From Salinisphaera hydrothermalis C41B8 (lineage in GTDB: Bacteria; Pseudomonadota; Gammaproteobacteria; Nevskiales; Salinisphaeraceae), in the NCBI RefSeq assembly GCF_000732535.1, contig NZ_APNK01000002.1, positions 124,001-188,000 on the forward strand: a stretch of DNA of 64,000 nt. Direction: 5' to 3'. The notes under the pieces were generated by a model. The model worked only from the letters and a program-made list of their open reading frames with translations, did no database searches and was not told where the DNA came from. The stretch's first letter is position 1, and the number at the start of each line of letters is the position of its first letter. The position numbers and the translations under genes were made by a program. Positions 57,409-64,000 of the stretch are shown one piece after another.

Positions 57409-59844
57409 CTATACGTCGGTTTTCATGCTTTCGATGAACTGTTCGAACGGCATGGGCCGGGCAATATAATAGCCCTGAACGTAGTTGATCCCGATGCGCT
57501 CCAGGGCGTCGAGCTGCTCTTTCGTTTCAACCTGTTCGGCCACCGTGCGCAGGCCGACGGCGCGGCTGACCTTGCTGAGCGCCTCGACGATCGCGTGCTC
57601 CACCGGATCCTCGGTGACGTGGCGTACCAGCTTGCCGTCGATCTTCACGAAGTCCGAGGGCAGGTGCTTGAGGTAGCTGAACGAGCTCACGCCGCTGCCG
57701 AAATCATCGAGGGCGAAGCGACACCCGATGGCGCGCAGCGAGCGCATCAGATCGGCGGCCCGTTGCAGATTGGTCACAGCCGCCGTTTCGGTAATCTCGA
57801 AGACCAGACGTTTCGGGTTGACGCCCGACTGCTCGATGCATTCGCGCACGAAACCGACGAACTGTTCGTCGGTGATCGACTGGCCCGAGATATTGATGCT
57901 GTAGTAGCCGATGCGCGGGCAGTCGGCATCGTGCCGGCCGATCAGCCGCAGGGCCTGATCGATCACCCATCGATCGATGCGCGAGGCCATGCTGTAGCGC
58001 TCCGCGGTCAGTAGGACATCCTGCGGCGAAATCATCGCACCCGGCTCGCCTTTCATGCGCAGCAGCAGTTCGCTGCCCATGCGCGAATCCGCGTTACGGC
58101 CCGTCAGCGGAGCGATCGGCTGGGCATGCAGCACAAAGCCATGGTCGTCCAGGGCTTCGTTGATCTTCTGCATGCGCTCGATCTCGTAATCGCGCATGCG
58201 GGCTTCGTCGCTGTCGCGATGATAGACCCGAACCTGGTTCCGGCCCTGTTCCTTGGCCAGATAGCAGGCGGTGTCGGCGCGGCGTAGCAGCTCGGCGGCG
58301 CTGGCCGAGCCTTCGTCGATCACGCTTAGTCCCAGACTCGCGCCCAGGCGAAACGCCTTGCCTTCCCATTCGAACCGGAAGCTTTCGAGCCACTGACGCA
58401 AGCGTTCGGCGGCGGCCTGCGCGGTTTCCAGGTCGGTTTCCTCGAAGATGATGCCGAATTCATCGCCGCCGAGTCGGGCCAGCGTGTCGTTCGGCCTGAG
58501 TTGCGTGACCATCTGCGAAGACAGCTGCCGCAGCATGGCATCGCCGGCATGATGGCCGCAGCTGTCGTTGATCAGTTTGAACTGATCCAGGTCGAGGTAG
58601 CACAGTGTGTGGTGCACCTTGTCCAGGCGGGTGGTTTCGAGCACATGCTTGAGCCGGCGTTCAAACGCCCGACGATTGAGCAGGCCGGTCAGCGAATCGT
58701 GATTGGCCTGATAGGTCAGCTCGCGTGAGACGCGCTCGAGCCGGGTGACATCGTGTAACACCACCACGGCGCCGATGATCTGGCTTTTTTCATCTCGGAT
58801 CGCCGACACGGTGACCGTGACCGAGCGATAATCGTCGGGCTCCCGCGTCGGGGTCTGATCGCCGATCAAGGCCAGGGTGTTGGCCCATTCCCGCGACATC
58901 CCCGTGGTCAGGCATTCGGTGACCAGCCCGTCGACGAATTCCTTCTTGTCGAGATCGAACAGCTGGCAGACATCCTCGAATGCGCGCCCCTGAACCTGCT
59001 TCATGCTGCGCGAGAGCATGTGTAGACCCCGGGGATTGATGTAATCGATAGTGCCGTCGGCATCGGTGGTGACGACCCCGTCCCCGATCGCTGCCAGCGT
59101 CACCTGGGCCCGCTCTTTTTCTTGATTGAGCTGGCGTTGCGTCTCGATCAGGCGGGTCCCGTCGCGGCATATGCCTTCGCTGCCGGTGATCTGGCCATCG
59201 GCATCATCGATACGGCGCGCGGAGATCAACAACCACGCGATACTGCCATCACGGCGGAAGACGCGGGTGGGGTAGCGCACGATGTTGGCGCTCTGGGTGA
59301 GTATCGCCAGATCGGTATCGGGATCGGCAAGCAGTCCCGACAGGGGGTAGCCCCGAAGCTCGTGCGACGTATAGCCCAGCATGTCGGACACCGAATCCGT
59401 CACCCAGGTGAGCCGACCGTCACGGTCTGCGTGGTACAGCACATCGGTAACGTTGCGCAACAACCGCTGCACTCGCTGATGTCGTACCAGCAGCTTGTCG
59501 CGGTAATCATGGACACGGGCGACGAGAGTTTCGGTGGCTGCCGCCAGACGCGGTGCACGGTTGGCCACCGTGTCGTTGAACTGCGGCAACTCGTCGGCCG
59601 TGATATCGACCTGCTCGATCCAGTCCGCCAGGGCGCTGGAGCTGGCTTGGCGGATATGCCGATCCACCCGCCATATAATCCCTAGCAGCACGATGGCCAG
59701 CCCACAACCGACGGCGGTGACTAGCACCGCCAGCATATCGCGGGGCGGCGTACTCACGTATGCCACGACCAACGCCGCGAACTGGCTAAGCAGGAGAAGG
59801 CCTAGGCATCCATAGAGCACGCTTCGAGCTGCAGCCATGAGCAC
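57409..59844 (-). CDS. PAS-GGDEF-EAL cyclic di-GMP signalling protein
   Basis: An 811-residue membrane protein. Two N-terminal helices (about 10-60), a short HAMP-like linker, two PAS domains (about 115-235 and 245-370), GGDEF (about 385-545; ARLGGDEFGIIFE intact) and EAL (about 560-805). The EAL motif reads SELLLRM; the other residues needed for phosphodiesterase activity (NISGQ, FEITET, LDDFGSG, KIDG, EQVET) are present. Both domains may be active. It faces away from the quorum-sensing kinase at 60029. Confidence 0.94.
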   Translation of the reverse strand: MLMAAARSVLYGCLGLLLLSQFAALVVAYVSTPPRDMLAVLVTAVGCGLAIVLLGIIWRVDRHIRQASSSALADWIEQVDITADELPQFNDTVANRAPRLAAATETLVARVHDYRDKLLVRHQRVQRLLRNVTDVLYHADRDGRLTWVTDSVSDMLGYTSHELRGYPLSGLLADPDTDLAILTQSANIVRYPTRVFRRDGSIAWLLISARRIDDADGQITGSEGICRDGTRLIETQRQLNQEKERAQVTLAAIGDGVVTTDADGTIDYINPRGLHMLSRSMKQVQGRAFEDVCQLFDLDKKEFVDGLVTECLTTGMSREWANTLALIGDQTPTREPDDYRSVTVTVSAIRDEKSQIIGAVVVLHDVTRLERVSRELTYQANHDSLTGLLNRRAFERRLKHVLETTRLDKVHHTLCYLDLDQFKLINDSCGHHAGDAMLRQLSSQMVTQLRPNDTLARLGGDEFGIIFEETDLETAQAAAERLRQWLESFRFEWEGKAFRLGASLGLSVIDEGSASAAELLRRADTACYLAKEQGRNQVRVYHRDSDEARMRDYEIERMQKINEALDDHGFVLHAQPIAPLTGRNADSRMGSELLLRMKGEPGAMISPQDVLLTAERYSMASRIDRWVIDQALRLIGRHDADCPRIGYYSINISGQSITDEQFVGFVRECIEQSGVNPKRLVFEITETAAVTNLQRAADLMRSLRAIGCRFALDDFGSGVSSFSYLKHLPSDFVKIDGKLVRHVTEDPVEHAIVEALSKVSRAVGLRTVAEQVETKEQLDALERIGINYVQGYYIARPMPFEQFIESMKTDV

Positions 59845-60028: not shown

Positions 60029-61465
60029 ATGACGGATTCTTCCGAGACCGAATACAAATCTGGTTCGACGTCTGATGCCGGCCAGAAGGTACCTCGCAAT
60101 GAACGCAGGAAAACGGCTGCTACGCCGTTTTTTCATGCCTTGGCAAGTCGGATTTCGAGCAGACTGATTGCCTCGCTGCAACAGAGCGCCTCGTACGGGC
60201 GCTCGATCATGGCAACATTTGCCATCATCGAAATCATCGGCCAGCCCTTGTATTACTACATGTGGCATGACCTTTACCCCCAACACTATGAAAATCTATG
60301 GCTCAGAGCGGTGTGCGTGCTTTTTGCCATACCGATGCTGTTCGAGCGCAACATTTCGCGGATGCGCGACGTTGAGCCATGGCTGACTCTTTACTGGCTT
60401 TTTGCGCTCGTTTTTCTGCTTCCGTTCTTCTTCTTCTTCATGACCCTCATGAATCATCTATCAGCGGTGTGGGCCTTGTCTACGCTTGCAGCTCTAATGC
60501 TGATGGTGATCCTGGTATTCGATTGGCTGATGACGATCTTGTTATCGGTCATAGGGGCTTTGTTAGCTTGGCTCGTTTTCAAGCTTGTCGGCGCCGATCT
60601 GCAGGTCGAAAACGATATCCCATTGCCGGTGTTGATCTCCATCTACTCCTTCGGAATCGTCGTAGGGAGCGCGATCAACTACAAGGCTGAGTTGGTCGCT
60701 AGAGAAAAACTCGCCGCTATTACTGATGCAGTCGGCACAATGGCGCACGAGCTGCGTACCCCGCTACTCGGCATCCGCAGTGGAGCGCGTGGATTAAGCA
60801 CCTATTTGCCTGCAATTATCGAAGGGTACGAACTGGCCAGAAAACATGACTTGCCTGTAAAAAGGATTCGTCGTGCTCATTTCGAACAAATGCAATCCGT
60901 TCTGGACCGTATCCGGACCGAAAGCGAATATACGGGCATTGTCCTCGACATGTTGCTGGTTAACTCCAGCCGCGCTGCTATCGATCGCTCTGTTTTCGTA
61001 CGAGTAGACATCAATCAATGTATTAATAAATCCTTGGAACGATATCCATTCCATTCCCCGCAGGAGAAAGAGCGGGTTAATTGGCTCGGTGGCCCAAGCT
61101 TCTCATTCGTCGGTTCGGAGCTTTTGATGGTCCACGTCATGTTCAACCTGTTGAAGAACGCCATTTACTATCTCGCCCGACAAGAGAGCGGTGAAATTAC
61201 AATCTGGACAACTCGTTCGGATTCTGGTGTTAATCAACTTCACTTTCGAGATACCGGCCCAGGTATACGGCCGGAGGTGTTGCCGCGGATCTTCGAACGC
61301 TTTTATTCCGGCATGCCGCGTGGCCAGGGAACCGGGATTGGCCTGGCCTTCGTCCGCCTCGTCATCGACAGCTTCGGCGGGCATATCCGCTGCGACTCGG
61401 TATGGGGCGAATACACTGAATTCACCATGAGTTTTCCGGAGATCCCTGACGATGGCCGAGATTGA
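60029..61465 (+). CDS. LqsS/CqsS-like quorum-sensing histidine kinase
   Basis: Membrane sensor kinase, 478 residues. A cytoplasmic tail of about 60 residues leads to six hydrophobic segments (about 60-218) with no periplasmic domain, the shape of alpha-hydroxyketone receptors CqsS and LqsS. HisKA has H240 in MAHELRTPLLGIRSGARGL; HATPase_c has NLLKNAIYYL, DTGPGI and GTGIGLAFVRL. Like LqsS and unlike CqsS it has no attached receiver. Codon use is less GC-rich than the neighbours, hinting at transfer. The regulator gene overlaps its end by 14 bp. ATG at 60029 preferred over a GTG five codons upstream. Confidence 0.87.
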   Translation: MTDSSETEYKSGSTSDAGQKVPRNERRKTAATPFFHALASRISSRLIASLQQSASYGRSIMATFAIIEIIGQPLYYYMWHDLYPQHYENLWLRAVCVLFAIPMLFERNISRMRDVEPWLTLYWLFALVFLLPFFFFFMTLMNHLSAVWALSTLAALMLMVILVFDWLMTILLSVIGALLAWLVFKLVGADLQVENDIPLPVLISIYSFGIVVGSAINYKAELVAREKLAAITDAVGTMAHELRTPLLGIRSGARGLSTYLPAIIEGYELARKHDLPVKRIRRAHFEQMQSVLDRIRTESEYTGIVLDMLLVNSSRAAIDRSVFVRVDINQCINKSLERYPFHSPQEKERVNWLGGPSFSFVGSELLMVHVMFNLLKNAIYYLARQESGEITIWTTRSDSGVNQLHFRDTGPGIRPEVLPRIFERFYSGMPRGQGTGIGLAFVRLVIDSFGGHIRCDSVWGEYTEFTMSFPEIPDDGRD

Positions 61466-62471
61466 GCTGGCGCCATATTTTCATCCAACCCAGATCGTGC
61501 TGATCGACGACGATATCGATTTTCTTGGCAATCTGAGCCTGCAGCTCGATGCCGATTTGGGATATCTGCTGTTCGACTCCACACACAAGGCCTTGAGCTA
61601 TCTCAACGGTCGACAATCGAATGGGGTGGCCCGCGGTCGCTTCTTCAGCGGGTTGACCAACGGTCATCGAGAACTCGAGCCGGATCGGCGCGAGCCGATC
61701 GAGCTCGACGTCGACGCATTACAGCGCGAAATGCACTCTTCGGATCGTTTCTCCCAGATCTCGGTCGCCCTGGTCGATTACGCGATGCCCCAGATGAACG
61801 GGCTCGAGTTTTGTCAGCAGATTCAGGATCCGCACGTCAAAAAGATTCTGTTCACCGGCGTGGCGACGGAATCAGTAGCAGTCGATGCATTCAACCGGGG
61901 CATCATCGACCAGTACATACGCAAGCACGAACATGCGGTCTACGACACGCTCAACCAGGCGATCCGCGCGTTCCAGCGCGAGTATATCCGTGACGTGTTC
62001 GTGTCGGCGGCGGATGTGTTTCCGATCAATGTGCCAGACATACTCAAAGAACCGGCGGTCGGCCAATTGCTAGAGCGCCTGCGCGCCGACCGGGGGCTGG
62101 TCGAGTATTACCTGGCAAATGATCCGTCAGGATTCGTTTTCGCCGATGCCGACGGCCACACCAAGCGCCTGGTGATCCAGAATCGCGATGAGAGAGCGCG
62201 GGAAGTACAGCGTGCTCGAGACGCTGGCGCTCCGGCATCGATCGTCGACGGTTTGGCGGCTGGGGCGATAATGCTCGATCCTGGAAGCGCGGTGTATCAT
62301 GAGCTCAACTGGTCCGTGCATACCGCACCGGCGGCCGAACTCGTCGATTCCACGGACTCGCTGCGTTGGAGTTTGTTCGAAACACCAGCCACCCAGGCCG
62401 GCATGCAACCCCGACCCAGCTACAACGAATTTCTCGAATGGCTGGACACTGTGGGTTACTCGTTAATGTGA
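61452..62471 (+). CDS. LqsR-like response regulator with enlarged receiver
   Basis: A 339-residue response regulator, similar in length to LqsR. The receiver begins IVLIDDDIDFLGNLSL (D19-D21), but about 45 residues (51-98) separate it from the phosphoacceptor D109 in ALVDYAMPQMNGLEF; FTG (134-136) and K158 follow. The remaining 180 residues match no DNA-binding, GGDEF or HD-GYP domain I recognise. It overlaps the kinase gene by 14 bp, so the two are translated together. Output unknown. Confidence 0.85.
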   Translation: MAEIELAPYFHPTQIVLIDDDIDFLGNLSLQLDADLGYLLFDSTHKALSYLNGRQSNGVARGRFFSGLTNGHRELEPDRREPIELDVDALQREMHSSDRFSQISVALVDYAMPQMNGLEFCQQIQDPHVKKILFTGVATESVAVDAFNRGIIDQYIRKHEHAVYDTLNQAIRAFQREYIRDVFVSAADVFPINVPDILKEPAVGQLLERLRADRGLVEYYLANDPSGFVFADADGHTKRLVIQNRDERAREVQRARDAGAPASIVDGLAAGAIMLDPGSAVYHELNWSVHTAPAAELVDSTDSLRWSLFETPATQAGMQPRPSYNEFLEWLDTVGYSLM

Positions 62472-63028
62472 GCGGCCGCTTTAGCTGTCGGGCTGGTCTC
62501 ACGTCGCAGTCACCCCGATAAAACCACGGGTTGACAGTCGGCTCGACTCCCCACTGAGCAGAGCCAACCCGGTGAACCAGCGCATGGCGCCACCCGGGCG
62601 CTTGAGGCAACGTCTCTTAGAGCTGACGTGTCGTACCTCAATACGATCGTATATCCGCGACGCGATCTCTCTTGTGTTCAAGGCGTCCAAGCGGAAATTC
62701 TTCAAGCGCCAGCCACCTCACGCCGGCATTTTTATAAGCCTAATTATTGATTTATATGGCAATTATTCAAGGCGACGTGACCGGGATGCAGCTGCCGGCA
62801 AACAAACGCTAACGGCGCGCACTCGGGGCGCCTGAGCCAAATAGCGCATTGGACCGAGGCGGAACCGAGGCAAAACGGGTCAGCTAAACCAGTGTCCGAT
62901 GGGATAATTTGAAAATCGATTGGTTTTTATAAAAAATTGAGAGCGTCGCGCAGCCCGACGGCAGTACTGACACTGCCCCGTAAAGATCTGTTGTTGTCAT
63001 CTCATCGCTTAACCAACGAGGCTATCCC
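62472..63028. other. AT-richer intergenic leader of the autoinducer synthase
   Basis: 557 bp without a supported gene. An 88-codon frame at 62572 has no coding look. A hairpin with a bulge (GGGTT..GGCTC at 62528-62544 with GAGCCAACCC) follows the regulator stop but has no T-run. From 62890 the sequence turns AT-rich (TTGAAA, then TATAAA), a likely promoter zone that I cannot align to a standard spacing. Confidence 0.45.
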
Positions 63029-64000
63029 ATGACTCAGTTTGCTTCTCCTAGTATCCAAGCCTGTGCCGCCCGTGTTGCGGCTGAGCCGAGCTTTCTCTCG
63101 GCACATGTCGATTACTACTATCGTGAACGCGTGAAAAAAGCGTGGAATGGGGGGCATATGCTGGATAGTCGTACACCTGGGCCGGATGCCGTCATGATGG
63201 TAAGCAACGATTATCTTGATATCGCGGATGACCCGTCGATTCGCCAGGCTCAGATTGATGCACTGGAAGGAAGCGAGAGCACTATGGTCATGTCAGCGGT
63301 GTTCCTGAACGGCGACAGCCCGCAGGACGCGTTCGAGCGCTCGATGGCCGACTGGATGGGGATGGAAGCGGCGCTGCTAAGTACGTCCGGCTATACGGCC
63401 AATGTTGGGCTGATTCAGGCTATAGCGACACCGGACACGCCAGTTTATGTCGACATGATGGCGCATGCGTCCCTTTGGCACGGTATTACCGCGGGCAAAC
63501 TGGAAGCCAGGCCTTTCCGGCACAATAGTGCTGATCATCTCGCCTCGATGATTAAGCGGCATGGCCCCGGGATTGTGGCTATCGATTCCGTCTATAGCAC
63601 CAACGGTAGTGTGGCTCCCGTACGTGAGATTGTTGAAGTCGCCCATGAGGCTGGCTGCGTGATCATCGTCGATGAATCACACTCACTGGGTACCCACGGC
63701 TGGCAGGGTAGCGGAATGGTGGCAGGCCTTGGTTTGCAGAACAAGGTCCATTTCGTAACGGCGAGCCTGGCCAAGGCATTCGCAGGCCGCGCCGGGTTGA
63801 TCGCCTGCAGTGCTCGCCTGCGAGACTTCATCAAGTATCACGCGTTTCCCGCCATCTTTAGCTCGGCAGTTCTGCCCTCGGATGTAGCGGGACTGGCCAA
63901 AACGCTCGATTTGATCAAGAGCGCAGATAAAAAGCGTCAACGTCTGTTCGACAATACCGATTACCTGAGACGTAATCTTTCTGCCCTGGGTTACAACGTT
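63029..64000 (+). CDS. cqsA: Alpha-hydroxyketone autoinducer synthase (CqsA/LqsA-like), 3'-truncated
   Basis: PLP-dependent alpha-oxoamine synthase that condenses an acyl-CoA with an amino acid-derived substrate to make CAI-1/LAI-1-type signals. The frame is open for 324 codons from ATG 63029 to the window end; relatives have about 390, so roughly 65 are missing. SNDYLDIADDP, VMSAVFLNG, PLP-binding DESHSLGTHGWQGSG (D215) and SLAKAFAGRAG with Schiff-base Lys249 are closer to CqsA/LqsA than to BioF or KBL. It lies 558 bp after the kinase-regulator pair on the same strand. Confidence 0.9.
   Translation, partial: MTQFASPSIQACAARVAAEPSFLSAHVDYYYRERVKKAWNGGHMLDSRTPGPDAVMMVSNDYLDIADDPSIRQAQIDALEGSESTMVMSAVFLNGDSPQDAFERSMADWMGMEAALLSTSGYTANVGLIQAIATPDTPVYVDMMAHASLWHGITAGKLEARPFRHNSADHLASMIKRHGPGIVAIDSVYSTNGSVAPVREIVEVAHEAGCVIIVDESHSLGTHGWQGSGMVAGLGLQNKVHFVTASLAKAFAGRAGLIACSARLRDFIKYHAFPAIFSSAVLPSDVAGLAKTLDLIKSADKKRQRLFDNTDYLRRNLSALGYNV

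What the first reader, a model, noticed from the sequence alone, without database searches (positions are those of the whole stretch)
60029..64000. An alpha-hydroxyketone quorum-sensing locus (Lqs/Cqs type)
A six-helix kinase without receiver, an overlapping response regulator with unknown output, and a CqsA/LqsA-like synthase lie together on one strand. The synthase is assigned by its SLAKAFAGRAG and VMSAVFL motifs; the kinase and regulator by shape and linkage. This trio is known mainly from Legionella and Vibrio, so a locus in this host, with a gene order kinase-regulator-synthase, would be a new variant. The kinase gene looks less GC-rich than its surroundings, which suggests transfer.
Basis: partly seen in the sequence, partly recalled or inferred. 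Interest (0 to 1): 0.85.

Follow-up and report, generated by a model that had tools for sequence, protein, structure and literature searches.

The report
Lqs-type quorum-sensing locus in Salinisphaera
This stretch holds a complete, intact set of genes for a known kind of bacterial chemical signalling (the Legionella/Vibrio-like hydroxyketone system) in a salt-loving genus; it is a real but largely ordinary new member of a known family.

Summary
A six-helix histidine kinase (60029-61465), a response regulator (61452-62471) and a PLP synthase (63029 to the equivalent of 64288, beyond the window) lie on one strand. The synthase passes NCBI's AHK-synthase model (569.7 bits, cut-off 428) and groups with CqsA, away from BioF/KBL/SPT. 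The regulator's best solved match, by sequence and predicted fold, is Legionella LqsR. The kinase keeps the main CqsS/LqsS sensing residues and catalytic boxes. The genus is Salinisphaera: 11 of 14 genomes carry the trio, all in this arrangement.
The claimed novelty mostly fails. Lqs clusters are already reported across Proteobacteria and in Chlorobiaceae. The gene order is the usual one; only the synthase orientation is flipped. Recent transfer is not supported.
One modest new point: a PAS-GGDEF-EAL (c-di-GMP) gene sits divergently beside the kinase in all 11 carriers and has no close match (E <= 1e-100) in the 3 non-carriers, two of which are incomplete genomes. A wider link between lqs loci and GGDEF genes, seen in Alcanivoracaceae and half of the Paraburkholderia loci, was absent from 18 further loci (0 of 18). 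Signal, chemistry and targets are inferred.

The parts
57409..59844 (-). PAS-PAS-GGDEF-EAL protein (c-di-GMP cyclase/phosphodiesterase type), divergent from the kinase gene; conserved neighbour, membership in the module inferred
   Evidence: Pfam EAL 214 bits, GGDEF 148 bits; beside lqsS in 11 of 11 Salinisphaera carriers, one of them cut by a contig end; no match at E <= 1e-100 in the 3 of 14 genomes without lqs
60029..61465 (+). lqsS-type sensor histidine kinase, 478 aa, six TM helices, no receiver; H240 phospho-acceptor, W148/S151 head-group sites, F208 gatekeeper, I216 tail-length site (roles by alignment)
   Evidence: (37% identity over 432 aa to the kinase of a Legionella-type locus)
61452..62471 (+). 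lqsR-type response regulator, 339 aa; phospho-acceptor D109 (= LqsR D108); overlaps the kinase gene by 14 nt
   Evidence: 6sy9, E 1.4e-47; family profile 383.6 bits over nearly the full length; Foldseek E 1.6e-29
62472..63028 (+). 557-nt intergenic region upstream of the synthase; a block at about 62905-63022 is 69% identical in the sister species; function unknown
   Evidence: no Rfam match at E <= 1 over L009 1500-7500, which includes this region
63029..64000 (+). lqsA/cqsA-type AHK autoinducer synthase, first 324 of 419 aa (the gene ends at the equivalent of 64288, outside the window); PLP lysine K249
   Evidence: NF005526 569.7 bits, cut-off 428; CqsA 2wk7, E 7e-106

Best explanation
This is the Lqs quorum-sensing locus of a Salinisphaera species. 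The synthase (LqsA type, PLP enzyme) most likely joins a fatty acyl-CoA to an amino-acid-derived substrate to make an alpha-hydroxyketone or amino-ketone signal of the CAI-1/LAI-1 kind. The signal is sensed by the six-helix membrane part of the LqsS-type kinase, which changes kinase activity at H240. Phosphate passes to D109 of the LqsR-type regulator, whose output domain, with no DNA-binding family recognised, then alters the cell's programme. The divergent PAS-GGDEF-EAL gene suggests that one outcome is a change in c-di-GMP (biofilm or motility). Shown here: identity, intactness, conservation and co-occurrence of the trio. Inferred: signal chemistry, phosphotransfer, targets and the c-di-GMP link.
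For: Synthase: NF005526 569.7 bits against a 428 cut-off, bioF only 237 against 426; CqsA E 7e-106; inside the AHK clade at SH-aLRT 100, apart from nine BioF/KBL/SPT enzymes; K249 and six of nine acyl-pocket positions kept. Regulator: LqsR 6sy9 by sequence and fold; D19, D109, T135 and K158 invariant in 22 sequences. Kinase: 37% identity to the kinase of a Legionella-type locus whose regulator is 82% identical to 6sy9; in 32 aligned kinases S151, F208 and H240 are invariant and W148 is in 31. The residue numbers of the Legionella-type row (S111, S114, F168, A172, H200) equal those published for LqsS (PMC3376566 section 11; PMC5289986 passage). Trio present together in 11 of 14 genus genomes; dN/dS 0.04-0.09 where computable.
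Against: No experiment. The synthase is the faster-evolving of the sister pair (branch 0.36 against 0.12) and departs at 5 of 116 conserved columns, the most of the 11 genus copies (range 1-5). Apart from those, it has a tyrosine at the CqsA C346 pocket position, found in none of the other 91 AHK synthases aligned. The kinase scores below Pfam's HisKA cut-off (20.8 against 26.9), as a divergent subfamily would. The trees are quick ones with SH-aLRT only and carry long-branch warnings; they do not place the Salinisphaera kinases or synthases nearer to Legionella than to Vibrio.
Confidence: 0.93

Rival explanations
1. The synthase is a housekeeping alpha-oxoamine synthase (BioF, KBL or serine palmitoyltransferase) that only happens to lie beside an unrelated two-component system.
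For: Same enzyme superfamily; bioF 237 bits and serine palmitoyltransferase 211 bits.
Against: Those scores are far below their cut-offs (426 and 500) while the AHK model is far above its own. The tree separates it from BioF/KBL/SPT. The genome has its own bioF-type (L004) and serine palmitoyltransferase-type (L006) genes elsewhere. The same three genes are adjacent in loci of at least ten named genera.
Confidence: 0.02
2. A recently acquired foreign island, as the low GC suggested.
For: Kinase GC 0.52 against 0.62-0.63 in the flanks; AHK synthases occur on 7 records of the plasmid collection (Vibrio, Cupriavidus, Tistrella).
Against: 11 of 14 genus genomes have it with the same arrangement and the same divergent neighbour. 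Salinisphaera sequences form single clades in all three trees. In the 10 relatives the kinase gene is only about 2 to 7 GC points below the flanks. Older transfer into the genus ancestor is not excluded: 0 of the 47 other family and order genomes has an AHK synthase over the cut-off.
Confidence: 0.04
3. A decaying or repurposed system: the genes are intact but the signal has changed or the synthase is losing function in this species.
For: Longer synthase branch than the sister (0.36 against 0.12), Y360 in the acyl pocket and I216 at the receptor tail site where 9 of 11 genus kinases have F.
Against: dN/dS 0.09 for the regulator and 0.07 for the synthase against the sister (kinase not computable, synonymous sites saturated); the frames are open over their full length; PLP lysine and receptor key residues kept; the regulator branch is not longer than the sister's (0.12 against 0.15).
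Confidence: 0.1

Closest known systems
Lqs system of Legionella pneumophila (lqsA-lqsR-hdeD-lqsS; LqsT orphan)
   Same: Synthase, LqsR-family regulator and receiver-less six-helix kinase in one cluster; LqsR fold and D108 site; kinase H200, S114 and F168 equivalents.
   Different: Synthase turned to the same strand; regulator and kinase genes overlap, so no hdeD between them; kinase has W148 where LqsS has S111, as in CqsS; a c-di-GMP gene is the neighbour.
CqsA/CqsS of Vibrio
   Same: Synthase 45% identical to V. cholerae CqsA; receptor W104/S107/F162 equivalents kept.
   Different: CqsS feeds a phosphorelay that converges on HapR (PMC3376566 passage), and V. cholerae has no LqsR homologue in its cqs cluster (PMC3566124 passage); here a receiver-less kinase lies beside an LqsR-type regulator.
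JqsA/JqsS/JqsR of Janthinobacterium sp. HH01 (PMC3566124) and other environmental lqs clusters (PMC3376566, PMC10653808)
   Same: The same three components in a non-pathogen; [quoted passage not shown]
   Different: Orientation of the synthase. The word Salinisphaera does not occur in the held texts of these three papers or of PMC5289986; their supplements were not seen.

Membership tests
CqsA/LqsA AHK autoinducer synthase | Passes the curated AHK-synthase model and not BioF/KBL | tested here: met
   NF005526 569.7 bits (cut-off 428); bioF 237.3 (426.45); KBL 202.4 (460)
CqsA/LqsA AHK autoinducer synthase | Groups with CqsA rather than BioF/KBL/SPT in a tree | tested here: met
   59-row quick tree, SH-aLRT 100 on the dividing branch; long-branch warnings on some rows
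CqsA/LqsA AHK autoinducer synthase | PLP lysine and acyl-pocket residues | tested here: met
   K249 and pocket positions H43, F92, I276, F277, P362, A363 kept; L45, Y270 and Y360 differ from V. cholerae CqsA
CqsA/LqsA AHK autoinducer synthase | Makes an alpha-hydroxyketone or amino-ketone | not testable with these tools
   needs enzyme assay and mass spectrometry
LqsR-family response regulator | Full-length similarity and same fold as LqsR (6sy9) | tested here: met
   E 1.4e-47 over residues 8-298; family profile 383.6 bits over positions 2-338 of 342; Foldseek E 1.6e-29, TM 0.78 by query and 0.86 by target
LqsR-family response regulator | Receiver active-site residues | tested here: met
   D19, D109, T135, K158 invariant in 22 sequences
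LqsS/CqsS sensor kinase | Six TM helices, H-box and ATP-binding boxes; no receiver (LqsS type) | tested here: met
   H240, N377, D408, G436, G438 invariant in 23 rows
LqsS/CqsS sensor kinase | Ligand-contact positions of CqsS | tested here: met
   W148, S151, F208 equal CqsS W104, S107, F162; Y206, V212, I216 differ from F160, F166, C170 (sites from PMC3376566 section 11)
LqsS/CqsS sensor kinase | Binds AHK and signals to the regulator | not testable with these tools
   needs binding and phosphotransfer assays
Lqs gene cluster | Synthase, regulator and kinase genes adjacent | tested here: met
   11 of 11 Salinisphaera carriers
Lqs gene cluster | Synthase convergent with regulator and kinase (commonest arrangement, not defining) | tested here: not met
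   63 of 66 other loci with a regulator have A>/<R/<S; the Salinisphaera loci are S>R>A>

The most novel reading that the evidence does not exclude
In Salinisphaera the Lqs system is a four-gene module: the PAS-PAS-GGDEF-EAL enzyme divergent from lqsS is its dedicated output, and the LqsR output domain, reported to resemble a degenerate diguanylate cyclase domain (PMC10653808 passage), controls that enzyme directly. AHK quorum sensing would then be wired to c-di-GMP inside one locus.
Probability: 0.2. Interest if true: 0.5.

Novelty: new member of a known kind. Interest (0 to 1): 0.27.

Why it matters
It adds a free-living genus in which most species examined carry an intact Lqs system, so the output of LqsR, still unknown, could be studied outside a pathogen. 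The conserved neighbouring c-di-GMP enzyme gives a concrete first candidate for that output. It does not change what is known about the spread of AHK signalling.

Tried and rejected
A general link between lqs loci and c-di-GMP genes: the first set looked promising. Within 1 kb of the core, 25 of 80 non-Salinisphaera loci had a GGDEF gene: 6 of 6 Alcanivorax/Alcanivoracaceae-labelled loci plus their relative L092, and 18 of 36 Paraburkholderia/Burkholderia-labelled loci. Between groups these proteins are 24-38% alike, mostly in the GGDEF(-EAL) domains, so they do not look orthologous (no tree of them was printed). In 18 further non-duplicate loci 0 had one within 1 kb and one had one at 4.2 kb; 4 of these 18 (L213, L214, L215, L217) are cut by a contig end within 1 kb on one side. 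I rejected the general claim and keep the lineage observations.

Absence of lqs together with absence of the GGDEF-EAL gene in 3 genomes as proof of a link: G009 and G013 have no GGDEF match at all (G010 was not in that call), so this may be one event of general loss. G009 and G010 are only 87% and 81% complete.

A hidden RNA or small gene in the 557-nt gap: no Rfam match; only a 69%-identical upstream block shared with the sister species, plus short weaker matches. The sigma-70 and terminator scan gave about chance numbers (4 against a mean of 2.0, 2 against 3.4).

A palindrome TGAC-N7-GTCA near the synthase start is in 5 of 11 Salinisphaera and 1 of 80 others; other spacings (N5, N11) also gave a few hits in both groups, and the N7 form is absent from that region here. 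It is not part of the explanation.

The trees used 11 genus and 38 of 80 other synthases plus CqsA and nine outgroup rows, 11 plus 22 regulators and 6sy9, and 11 plus 31 kinases and one outgroup. Searches list only E <= 1e-90, so weak relatives are not counted. One genus kinase match (G004) spans a TGA, which lies ahead of the ORF start found.
Full report
What is there. The window is positions 124001-188000 of contig 2 of a 4.28-Mb genome. The three ORFs are as described: kinase 60029-61465, regulator 61452-62471 (14-nt overlap) and synthase from 63029. The synthase runs off the window and is complete on the contig at 419 aa. Six of the seven closest named synthase loci are titled Salinisphaera and the seventh, titled Endozoicomonas, matches in length a contig of a same-genus genome. 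The host is therefore taken as Salinisphaera; the genome itself is unnamed.

Synthase. It scores 569.7 bits against NCBI's AHK autoinducer synthase model (cut-off 428) and far below the cut-offs for BioF, KBL and serine palmitoyltransferase. The best solved structures are V. cholerae CqsA (E 7e-106). In a 59-row quick tree it sits with CqsA and the other AHK synthases, split at SH-aLRT 100 from nine BioF, KBL and SPT enzymes classified; the program warned of long branches, L172 and L171 among them. The 11 Salinisphaera sequences form one clade (100). The PLP lysine K249 is invariant in the aligned set. At acyl-pocket positions named in PMC3285556 (passage read) six of nine residues are as in V. 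cholerae CqsA, but residue 360 is tyrosine where 10 of 11 genus copies and 70 of 80 others have cysteine.

Regulator. Its best solved match is 6sy9, E 1.4e-47, titled the structure of the Legionella pneumophila response regulator LqsR. A 22-sequence family profile matches 6sy9 at 383.6 bits over nearly its full length. The predicted fold (mean pLDDT 86) finds 6sy9 first at E 1.6e-29, the next match at 1.7e-8. D109 aligns with LqsR D108 (allowing for 20 extra residues in the chain numbering; D108 from a passage of PMC3376566), and D19, D109, T135 and K158 are invariant. PMC10653808 (passage) reports that the LqsR output resembles a degenerate diguanylate cyclase domain, with no activity found.

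Kinase. It has HATPase_c, a HisKA match below the cut-off and no receiver, with six helices ahead of the kinase core. It is 37% identical over 432 aa to the kinase of locus L171, a Legionella-type locus whose regulator is 82% identical to 6sy9. In an alignment of 32 AHK-linked kinases the window has W148, S151 and F208 where V. cholerae CqsS has W104, S107 and F162. The L171 row gives S111, S114, F168, A172 and H200, the numbers published for LqsS, which checks the mapping (PMC3376566 section 11; PMC5289986 passage). So this kinase is LqsS-like in architecture but has the CqsS-type tryptophan. At the site said to set tail length (CqsS C170) 9 of 11 genus kinases have phenylalanine, G002 has cysteine and the window isoleucine. 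A shift in signal length in this species is a guess. The kinase tree leaves the deep branches open and does not tell a Legionella from a Vibrio affinity.

Distribution. The synthase passes the cut-off in 11 of 14 genus genomes and in 0 of 47 other family and order genomes. Regulator and kinase are in the same 11. Of the three without, G009 and G010 are 87% and 81% complete, G013 99%. In drawn samples, 8 of 369 class genomes, 17 of 398 phylum genomes and 16 of 300 genomes of the order of G739 have a synthase at E <= 1e-90. The samples overlap in part, and the class and phylum samples contain the window genome. dN/dS is 0.04-0.09 in 11 of 12 gene pairs; the kinase pair of window and sister was not computable because synonymous sites are saturated.

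Arrangement. All 11 Salinisphaera loci read kinase>regulator>synthase>. Of 80 other loci, 58 have a regulator: 57 are synthase> <regulator <kinase and one (L174, genome G424) is like Salinisphaera. Of 18 new loci, eight have a regulator: six convergent, one cut by a contig end, one R-S-A. The order is therefore the usual one with the synthase gene turned in place.

Transfer. GC of the kinase gene is below both flanks in 11 of 11 genus loci, by about 10 points here and 2 to 7 in the others; the synthase gene is not below both flanks in G003, G004 and G006. The divergent GGDEF-EAL neighbour is the same in 11 of 11 (one truncated at a contig end), while the gene after the synthase varies: the M19 peptidase in the window, G007 and G001, and another shared gene in five genomes. 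All three proteins form genus clades. This speaks for an old genus locus, not a recent import.

c-di-GMP neighbour. The PAS-PAS-GGDEF-EAL gene is found at E <= 1e-100 in the 11 carriers and not in the 3 non-carriers. G009 and G013 have no GGDEF match at all, against 20-31 in four carriers, so the co-occurrence may reflect one loss. Other lineages carry unlike GGDEF genes beside lqsA, but a second sample gave 0 of 18. A regulatory link between Lqs and c-di-GMP is already described in Legionella (PMC11237717 passages). Two searches, for LqsA with diguanylate cyclase (5 papers) and for CqsA with diguanylate cyclase and related terms (9 papers), were seen as listings; passages of two of these papers were read. 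None showed a report of this gene adjacency, which is weak evidence of novelty.

Literature. Lqs clusters in environmental bacteria were reported in 2012 (PMC3376566: Ralstonia, Nitrococcus, Burkholderia, Polaromonas; passages and section 11), 2013 (PMC3566124: Janthinobacterium jqsA-jqsS-jqsR, with a jqsA deletion phenotype; passages), 2017 (PMC5289986: also Chlorobiaceae; [quoted passage not shown] passages). A search for Salinisphaera with quorum sensing listed 7 papers, none with either term in title or abstract (listing only).

Verdict. A real, intact Lqs-type AHK quorum-sensing locus; a new member of a known kind, with a minor orientation change and a conserved c-di-GMP neighbour worth a test.

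Noticed in passing
L153 2750-9118 (G000 contig 3, 133749-140117): Four co-directional genes: a methyltransferase-domain protein, a hybrid kinase, a receiver-kinase whose kinase core is 38% identical to this LqsS, and a response regulator. They recall the Ralstonia phcBSRQ signalling genes (resemblance recalled, not tested). The methyltransferase is in 2 of 14 genus genomes.
   Followed up: partly
upstream or start of lqsA in L156, L158, L159, L161, L163: TGAC-N7-GTCA palindrome near the start of lqsA in 5 of 11 Salinisphaera, 1 of 80 other loci, none at the window's synthase; possible operator.
   Followed up: partly
L061, L051, L089, L098, L084 and others: Unlike GGDEF genes next to lqsA in Alcanivoracaceae (divergent) and half of the Paraburkholderia/Burkholderia loci (co-directional).
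   Followed up: yes
G009, G013: Two Salinisphaera-genus genomes with no GGDEF match at all and no lqs genes; perhaps a lineage without c-di-GMP cyclases (G009 is 87% complete).
   Followed up: no
L006 1465-3894 (G000 contig 4): 810-aa ORF with serine palmitoyltransferase in its C-terminal half and about 410 aa ahead of it; similar long frames at such matches in other genus genomes.
   Followed up: no
L172 (G100 contig 13): The genome with the Legionella-type lqs locus has a second, divergent synthase relative below the cut-off (371 bits against 428), with no kinase or regulator match in the fetched 12 kb.
   Followed up: no
   Followed up: no
L009 7395-9224: A second c-di-GMP gene (GAF-EAL) after the M19 peptidase, in the window genome and G007 only among the 11 stretches fetched.
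   Followed up: no
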